From NCBI GenBank assembly GCA_029570205.1, contig JAKQSI010000093.1, positions 1 through 64,000 on the forward strand: a DNA stretch of 64,000 nt, given 5' to 3'. The notes below the pieces were generated by a model. That model was given only the letters and a program-made list of their open reading frames with translations. It was not told the origin of the DNA and did no database searches. A program made the translations under genes and the position numbers. This document shows, in pieces, positions 13,661 through 14,947 of the stretch (position 1 is the stretch's first letter; each line of letters opens with the position of its first letter). This stretch comes from Candidatus Omnitrophota bacterium. GTDB lineage: Bacteria; Hinthialibacterota; Hinthialibacteria; Hinthialibacterales; JAKPRU01.

Positions 13661-14947
13661 TCAATCATCCGCCCTCACAATGTTCGCTCCAAGCTGCCTC
13701 AGACGGTAATCCAGTTTCTCATAACCCCGGTCGATCTGTTCGATATTCTGGATTACGCTTTCCCCATCGGCACACAGGGCCGCTATCAACAGGGCCATAC
13801 CGGCTCGAATATCCGGGCTGGAGATAACACTTCCCCGCAGTTTGGTTGAGCCGATAATTACCGCCCGGTGCGGATCACAAAGAATGATATTCGCCCCCAT
13901 CCCGATCAAACGGTCCACAAAAAACAGACGGCTTTCATACATCTTCTCGAATACCATCACAGAGCCTTTAGTTTGAGTGGCAATTACTACGACGATACTG
14001 GTCAAGTCCGCAGGAAATCCGGGCCAGGGCGCATCATCGATTTTTACCAGACCGTTGAGAACATCAGGTCGCACTTCCAGGCTTTGACCGGGCGGAACAT
14101 GCAGTGCTCCATCCGTGCAGGTCACATCGATTCCGAGCCGTCCAAACTGGTACAGAATCATCCGCAAATCTTCATAGGGAACATCTCGAATCAGGAGGTC
14201 ACTGCCCGTTACGGCCGCCAGGCCGATTACACTGCCGATCTCGACATAGTCGGCGGCGATACGGTGGGTCCCGCCTTTCAGGTCCTCCACTCCGTTGATG
14301 GTGAGCATGTTCGATCCGATCCCGCTAATCTGCGCTCCAAGGGTATTCAGGAACCGGCAGAGCTGCTGCACACTCGGCTCGCAGGCCGCATTTCGAATGA
14401 TAGTCTGTCCTTCCGCCAGCGCAGCGGCCATCACCAGGTTCTCGGTCCCCGTCACACTGGCCTCGTCCATCAGGATATCGGCGCCTTTGAGACGTTGGCC
14501 GCACCAGAGATGAAACGAATCCGCCGAGGCGGAACAATGAACCCCCATCTGCTGAAATCCCAGCAGGTGCGAATCAATCCGCCGCCGTCCGATGCGATCT
14601 CCACCCGGTTGGGGAAATTGCGTTCGTCCGCAGCGGGCCAGGAGAGGAGCCGCGAGTGTGATGGAACCCCGAATGCCGCGGGCGACATCTTTCGGCAGGG
14701 AGGTCGCTCCGATATGTTGTGCCTTAACCTTTACCTCGTGCGGTCCGACATGTTCCACCGAGGCCCCGATCTCCTCGAGCAGCTGCAACATACTTCGCAC
14801 ATCGCCGATATCCGGCAGGTTCTCCAGGTGCACCTCTTCCCGCGTCAACAGGCACGCGCTCAATACCGGCAGCGCCTCATTTTTGTTCCCGGACGGAATA
14901 AACTCCCCGCCCAGCGGATTGCCGCCCTCGACAACGAAACGCGCCAT
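13661..14947 (-). CDS. murA: UDP-N-acetylglucosamine 1-carboxyvinyltransferase
   Basis: 428 residues, usual length. MurA transfers enolpyruvate from PEP to UDP-GlcNAc in the cytoplasm, the first committed step of peptidoglycan synthesis. ATG 14947 is chosen over an 18-codon Arg-rich extension because GGAGTGGTGAC precedes it. Lys22 sits in SGNKNEALP and the Asp of DDAPWPGFPADLTS matches the catalytic Asp305 of E. coli. The active-site loop reads PGGDRIGRRRID, so the position of E. coli Cys115 is Asp117. That swap is known in Mycobacterium and Chlamydia and makes the enzyme insensitive to fosfomycin. It lies downstream of the GHMP kinase. Confidence 0.96.
   Translation of the reverse strand: MARFVVEGGNPLGGEFIPSGNKNEALPVLSACLLTREEVHLENLPDIGDVRSMLQLLEEIGASVEHVGPHEVKVKAQHIGATSLPKDVARGIRGSITLAAPLLARCGRTQFPQPGGDRIGRRRIDSHLLGFQQMGVHCSASADSFHLWCGQRLKGADILMDEASVTGTENLVMAAALAEGQTIIRNAACEPSVQQLCRFLNTLGAQISGIGSNMLTINGVEDLKGGTHRIAADYVEIGSVIGLAAVTGSDLLIRDVPYEDLRMILYQFGRLGIDVTCTDGALHVPPGQSLEVRPDVLNGLVKIDDAPWPGFPADLTSIVVVIATQTKGSVMVFEKMYESRLFFVDRLIGMGANIILCDPHRAVIIGSTKLRGSVISSPDIRAGMALLIAALCADGESVIQNIEQIDRGYEKLDYRLRQLGANIVRADD

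What the first reader, a model, noticed from the sequence alone, without database searches (positions are those of the whole stretch)
13661..14947. MurA with Asp in place of the fosfomycin-target Cys
The active-site loop reads PGGDRIGRRRID; in E. coli the matching residue is Cys115 (PGGCxIG). Asp at this site is an established cause of natural fosfomycin resistance in Mycobacterium and Chlamydia. Lys22 and the catalytic Asp are kept, so the enzyme should be active.
Basis: partly seen in the sequence, partly recalled or inferred. Interest (0 to 1): 0.5.

Follow-up and report, generated by a model that had tools for sequence, protein, structure and literature searches.

The report
Naturally fosfomycin-proof MurA, inherited lineage-wide
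The gene makes the first enzyme of cell-wall building with an aspartate where the antibiotic fosfomycin needs a cysteine to attach; this is real but is an inherited trait of a widespread branch of the enzyme, which in this bacterial order stands where its relatives have the ordinary one.

Summary
Confirmed. Window 13661-14947, minus strand, encodes a 428-aa MurA with Asp117 at the E. coli Cys115 site; 12 of 13 other active-site residues checked are kept (Leu370 is Ile). It is the only MurA found in the genome, beside Mur ligases, so it should be active and needed. Insensitivity to fosfomycin is inferred from published Asp enzymes, not measured.

In the window's phylum 9 of 9 genomes of its order carry it; 5 of 5 from other families carry a canonical Cys MurA, 31-37% identical. 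One clade for both is rejected (p-AU 1.2e-5). Two of those five keep prmC-murA; six of six order genomes read keep prfA-prmC without murA. The best reading is replacement of the ordinary MurA by an Asp-type one from elsewhere. Direction, donor and any role of fosfomycin are unproven; old duplication with differential loss is not excluded. A new member of a known kind, with an interesting history.

The parts
13661..14947 (-). murA, UDP-N-acetylglucosamine 1-carboxyvinyltransferase, 428 aa, Asp type
   Evidence: TIGR01072 465.2 bits over its 392.7 cut-off, NF006873 481.4 over 297; PF00275; AlphaFold2 model pLDDT 92.5 matching solved MurA 1uae at Z 58.3, 1.2 A over 417 residues
14597..14599 (-). 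codon (GAT) of Asp117, at the place of E. coli Cys115
   Evidence: alignment with E. coli K-12 MurA; motif match at 14567-14605 minus; codon read
14882..14884 (-). codon of Lys22 (E. coli Lys22)
14006..14008 (-). codon of Asp314 (E. coli Asp305, the catalytic base as I recall)
13811..13813 (-). codon of Asp379 (E. coli Asp369)
14948..15001 (-). possible 18-codon extension if the GTG at 15001 is the start
   Evidence: ORF list; against it, the MurA models begin at residue 19 of the longer form, which is the ATG at 14947
15078..16076 (-). GHMP-family kinase upstream of murA, same strand (context only)
   Evidence: PF00288 45.4 bits; beside murA in the same genus (G001) but without a match in the four other order loci read

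Best explanation
This is the genome's only MurA. It transfers enolpyruvate from PEP to UDP-GlcNAc, the first committed step of peptidoglycan synthesis. Asp117 stands where canonical enzymes have the cysteine that is thought to protonate PEP and that fosfomycin alkylates; a carboxylate can take over the proton role but is not alkylated, so the enzyme should be active and fosfomycin-insensitive. The Asp was inherited with a separate, widespread MurA lineage. In the ancestry of this order a gene of that lineage took the place of the canonical Cys MurA at another chromosomal site, leaving prfA-prmC without murA. Shown here: the residue, the single copy, the lineage, the split inside the phylum and the prfA-prmC context. 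Inferred: catalysis, insensitivity, and transfer followed by loss of the old gene (rather than differential loss of two old copies).
For: Family score over the curated cut-off. Active-site residues kept. The only other EPSP-family gene found is AroA, beside a chorismate-synthase-like gene (both recognised by eye). Five Mur-ligase-domain genes, four of them clustered on C114. Model matches solved MurA, the C115D and C116D mutants among them. Published Asp enzymes are active and insensitive; AEW1_Fos01, about 92% identical to a Mucilaginibacter MurA, has Asp and gave resistance in E. coli. Lineage: the 77-row tree puts the order inside an Asp clade of 29 rows (100/99) within a 38-row lineage (100/100), and the class relatives inside the canonical part with E. 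coli. 13 phylum rows as one clade rejected, p-AU 1.2e-5, lnL difference 295.7. Control gene S1 follows the taxonomy: 59-64% in three order genomes, 44-50% in four class relatives, 35-39% in nine Bacteroidota, 33-41% in four others, while MurA is 62-65%, 31-37% and 50-54%. prfA-prmC-murA in G009 and prmC-murA in G011; prfA-prmC without murA in 6 of 6 order genomes read. 51 of 51 genomes with the lineage motif have one loop-motif match in all.
Against: No activity, inhibition or growth was measured. E. coli C115D was absent from a saturation library and judged unable to support viability (PMC9842644, passages). The reports on that mutant enzyme differ: fully active in the review, more than 10-fold less efficient in PMC5652432. 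So Asp is not neutral in every MurA. In three of five class relatives (G010, G012, G013) prmC and murA lie on different contigs, so the prmC link is not general in the phylum. The nearest outside relative is not settled: order plus Bacteroidota plus L168 is 99/94 in the careful tree but not starred in the 108-row quick tree. G009 gave only a weak partial S1 match. The loop pattern missed 1 of 123 known loci, so a divergent second copy could go unseen. Most phylum members look like fragmented drafts.
Confidence: 0.8

Rival explanations
1. Two old MurA paralogues, one Cys and one Asp, coexisted early and were lost differentially, so no transfer into this order occurred.
For: Both lineages are spread over many families; the class of G563 also holds both lineages in different families.
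Against: Not one of the 51 lineage-motif genomes has a second loop-motif match, so one of the two copies would have to have been lost in every sampled case.
Confidence: 0.2
2. The Asp is an old catalytic variant fixed for reasons unrelated to fosfomycin, such as no covalent PEP-cysteine dormant complex or no thiol to oxidise; insensitivity is a by-product.
For: The Asp clade holds many families and comes from water, soil and gut genomes alike (titles); solved Cys enzymes form a covalent PEP-Cys115 adduct with UDP-MurNAc (3su9, 3swd titles), which an Asp enzyme would not form in the same way (inference).
Against: None specific; selection history cannot be read from these data.
Confidence: 0.55
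3. The protein is not MurA but an enolpyruvyl transferase of another pathway (AroA-like or NikO-like).
For: Same superfamily.
Against: AroA model 59.3 bits against a 287.25 cut-off; NikO chain 73.9 bits against 266 for MurA; it would leave the genome with Mur ligases but no MurA found.
Confidence: 0.02

Closest known systems
Asp-type MurA of Bacteroidota, including soil clone AEW1_Fos01 (PMC8066302)
   Same: Same lineage by tree for the Bacteroidota rows and the same kind of loop, GGD[KR]IGRRR[IL]D[TS]H in most; AEW1_Fos01 has Asp and confers fosfomycin resistance on E. coli.
   Different: 50-54% identical to the window protein.
Asp-type MurA of Mycobacterium, Chlamydia and Borrelia
   Same: Aspartate at the Cys115 site; published fosfomycin insensitivity.
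   Different: These proteins themselves were not aligned here. Nine sampled Asp MurAs with other loops (one GGDAIGSRPLDMH, which I recall as actinobacterial; three ending RPVDLH; five ending R[PA]V[DN][FY]H) fall outside the window's lineage. That tree needs four Cys-Asp changes, three of them forced by starred branches.
Canonical Cys115 MurA (E. coli, E. cloacae)
   Same: Fold (Z 58.3 to 1uae), active-site residues and family models.
   Different: 36% identical to 1uae over 417 residues; Cys to Asp, Leu370 to Ile, distinct lineage.
   Same: 42-48% identical, sister to the Asp clade (100/99).
   Different: Cys at the site in 12 of 12 loci.

Membership tests
MurA (UDP-GlcNAc 1-carboxyvinyltransferase, TIGR01072) | score over the curated equivalog cut-off | tested here: met
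   465.2 bits, cut-off 392.7
MurA (UDP-GlcNAc 1-carboxyvinyltransferase, TIGR01072) | conserved active-site residues other than 115 | tested here: met
   12 of the other 13 E. coli residues checked are identical; Leu370 is Ile
MurA (UDP-GlcNAc 1-carboxyvinyltransferase, TIGR01072) | MurA fold | tested here: met
   AlphaFold2 pLDDT 92.5, pTM 0.91; the first 37 of 50 VIA rows are MurA entries, Z 47-58, then NikO and AroA
MurA (UDP-GlcNAc 1-carboxyvinyltransferase, TIGR01072) | enzyme activity on UDP-GlcNAc and PEP | not testable with these tools
   needs a bench assay
Asp-type, fosfomycin-insensitive MurA | Asp in place of the fosfomycin-alkylated Cys | tested here: met
   Asp117
Asp-type, fosfomycin-insensitive MurA | no inhibition by fosfomycin | not testable with these tools
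   inferred from published enzymes
Asp-type, fosfomycin-insensitive MurA | no fosfomycin-sensitive MurA copy elsewhere in the genome | tested here: met
   two PF00275 genes, the other is AroA; the genome is 93% complete, so a missing copy is not strictly excluded, but none of the 9 order genomes shows a second MurA
AroA (EPSP synthase) | score over TIGR01356 cut-off | tested here: not met
   59.3 bits, cut-off 287.25

The most novel reading that the evidence does not exclude
Most naturally Asp-type MurAs in bacteria belong to one old lineage, distinct from the mycobacterial and chlamydial examples, that moves between phyla as a drop-in replacement of the canonical enzyme, so that whole orders became fosfomycin-insensitive in one step by exchanging an essential gene instead of by point mutation.
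Probability: 0.5. Interest if true: 0.55.

Novelty: new member of a known kind. Interest (0 to 1): 0.35.

Why it matters
The review I saw passages of (PMC4790336) names three pathogens as natural Asp-MurA bearers. Here 61 of 386 sampled genomes carry an Asp loop (52 of 372 outside the window's phylum), 51 of them of one lineage (42 of 372 outside), so target-based fosfomycin insensitivity may be an inherited state in sizeable parts of the bacterial tree. It gives a sequence rule for predicting it, a natural Cys-bearing sister clade for comparing mechanisms, and a case of an essential antibiotic-target gene displaced as a whole.

Tried and rejected
A claim that Bacteroidota hold both MurA types was considered after and dropped. 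The genomes drawn as 'phylum of G041' proved mixed: the Bacteroidota marker SusD was found in 8 of 8 lineage-Asp genomes tested from that draw, but in only 2 of 9 Cys-type ones (one marginal, E 7.7e-4) and not in the Asp-type G213 of another lineage; it was also absent from 8 of 8 lineage-Asp genomes tested from outside that draw, the window's genome among them, and from G563. The label bacC in the tree is therefore void; those nine rows are Cys rows of unknown phylum. A second clade test, on the 27 rows then labelled Bacteroidota, did not finish and was not repeated, since its grouping was void.

Co-variation of Asp with Ile at the Leu370 site was tested: 41 of 43 Asp rows but also 9 of 59 Cys rows have Ile. 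Only 3 independent pairs exist on the tree; on average 0.9 go the same way, 0 the other way and 2.1 do not differ, so nothing can be concluded.

prmC directly upstream of murA: 19 of 45 Cys-type loci of the domain sample (18 of 41 after removing four genes fetched twice), 0 of 89 Asp loci (some of these also fetched twice), and 0 of 20 loci of the G563 class, where sister-Cys and canonical loci are mixed (loci with under 400 bases upstream were left out). One locus of the similarity-picked set was scored Cys by that script's crude regex, also without prmC; one search shows Asp there. The Asp set is dominated by similarity-picked Bacteroidota.

Counts: 68 of 386 genomes matched the Asp pattern; I dropped 7 whose translation does not fit a MurA loop (one holds a stop codon). 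The listing was cut, so Cys counts over all 386 genomes are not given.

Literature: eight searches (listings of the best 6-20 papers each) of the open-access library showed no paper whose listing describes this lineage or its replacement of canonical MurA; subscription papers are not covered.

Full report
What is there. On the minus strand, 14947 down to 13661, lies a 428-aa open frame. It passes the NCBI equivalog model for MurA (465.2 bits, cut-off 392.7), and its AlphaFold2 model (pLDDT 92.5) overlays solved MurA 1uae with Z 58.3, 1.2 A over 417 residues. Aligned with E. coli K-12 MurA from NC_000913, Cys115 corresponds to Asp117; Lys22, Asn23, Arg91, Arg120, Asp123, Ser162, Val163, Asp305, Arg331, Asp369, Arg371 and Arg397 are all kept, and Leu370 is Ile. 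The stretch holding Asp117 is the least certain part of the model (mean pLDDT 66 for residues 111-120), as would fit a mobile loop.

Single copy. The genome has two genes of the EPSP-synthase superfamily. The other one is AroA, beside a chorismate-synthase-like gene (both recognised by eye). Five Mur-ligase-domain genes are present, four of them clustered on contig C114; MurB was not sought. So this MurA should feed a peptidoglycan pathway. The assembly is 93% complete, but none of the 9 genomes of the order shows a second MurA; their other hits are weak, 23-28% identical.

What Asp does. Published work on Asp MurAs supports insensitivity. For E. coli C115D, M. tuberculosis, C. trachomatis and B. 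burgdorferi I saw passages of the review PMC4790336. E. faecium C119D keeps kcat, with a two-fold higher Km for UDP-GlcNAc and a fosfomycin IC50 above 100 uM against 177 nM for wild type (PMC5652432, passages). A soil clone about 92% identical to a Mucilaginibacter MurA has the Asp and gave E. coli resistance (PMC8066302, section 2.5 read). Against easy interchangeability, saturation editing in E. coli found no viable C115D (PMC9842644, passages), and reports on the activity of that mutant differ. Nothing was measured on the window enzyme.

A lineage trait. The best named relatives are two MAGs titled Candidatus Omnitrophota (64%) and 78 loci with Bacteroidota titles (50-54%), all 80 with Asp. 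They were picked by similarity. Three named Bacteroidota records fetched later (Parabacteroides, Riemerella, Prevotella) also have the loop GGDKIGRRRLDTH. In 386 genomes given as relatives across the domain, 14 of them from the window's phylum, 352 match the loop pattern, chance matches included, and 68 match its Asp version. Seven of the 68 do not fit a MurA loop by their translation. Of the other 61, 51 (28 family codes, 9 genomes in the window's own order) have the form GGDx[IL]GxRR[ILVM]D[TSP]H and 10 (8 family codes) another form. All 51 have exactly one loop match in all. In a 108-row tree the 58 rows with this form, plus one Bacteroidota row with a variant loop, make one set (100 SH-aLRT); the tree needs four Cys-Asp changes, three forced by starred branches. 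In the careful 77-row tree the lineage holds 38 rows (100/100): an Asp clade of 29 (100/99) and a Cys clade of 9 (100/99). The lineage reaches beyond Bacteroidota: the marker SusD was found in 8 of 8 lineage-Asp genomes of the Bacteroidota draw but in 0 of 8 tested from elsewhere.

Replacement in this order. The held phylum has 14 genomes. The window's order (9) has Asp MurA; the 5 from other families have canonical Cys MurA at 31-37% identity. A tree holding 13 phylum rows together is rejected (p-AU 1.2e-5; one near-identical order row was left out). The nearby gene for ribosomal protein S1 behaves normally: 59-64% in three order genomes, 44-50% in four class genomes (one of them in two pieces), 35-39% in nine Bacteroidota and 33-41% in four other genomes; the fifth class genome, G009, gave only a weak partial match. 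In the class, murA follows prmC in G009 (prfA-prmC-murA) and in G011 (prmC-murA, about 350 bases apart), an arrangement also seen in 19 of 45 Cys loci of the domain sample (18 of 41 distinct). In 6 of 6 order genomes read (of 8 with a strong PrmC match), prfA-prmC is present with no MurA of either type in the 10-11 kb fetched. In G010, G012 and G013 prmC and murA lie on different contigs. In the four order loci of the other family that were read, a Memo-family gene starts 3.4-3.7 kb beyond murA on the same strand; in the window and in G001 it lies about 6 kb away on the other strand, with other genes between. The simplest account is that a lineage MurA settled at a new site and the canonical gene was lost. 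Old duplication with differential loss is not excluded.

Verdict. As a presumably fosfomycin-insensitive Asp MurA it is a new member of a known kind. The more interesting part is that the residue comes with a widespread MurA lineage that stands in for the canonical enzyme in this order.

Noticed in passing
window 10664-13501 (-): 945-aa protein with only a weak partial match to the alpha-galacturonidase model (40.8 bits, cut-off 1300) and no Pfam match; conserved in the same genus next to murA.
   Followed up: no
window 17356-19437 (-): Ribosomal protein S1 with about 110 extra N-terminal residues before the best model matches begin.
   Followed up: no
Possibly bacteria with reduced peptidoglycan synthesis.
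   Followed up: no
L219 and three further Riemerella records of 102-105 kb; L218: Records called plasmids carry murA; in L219 it lies near miaA, rpmA and rplU and in L218 beside rimM, so these two look like chromosome pieces.
   Followed up: partly
window 13661-22289 and L221-L224: A Memo-family gene lies near murA in both families of the order although distance, strand and the genes between differ.
   Followed up: no
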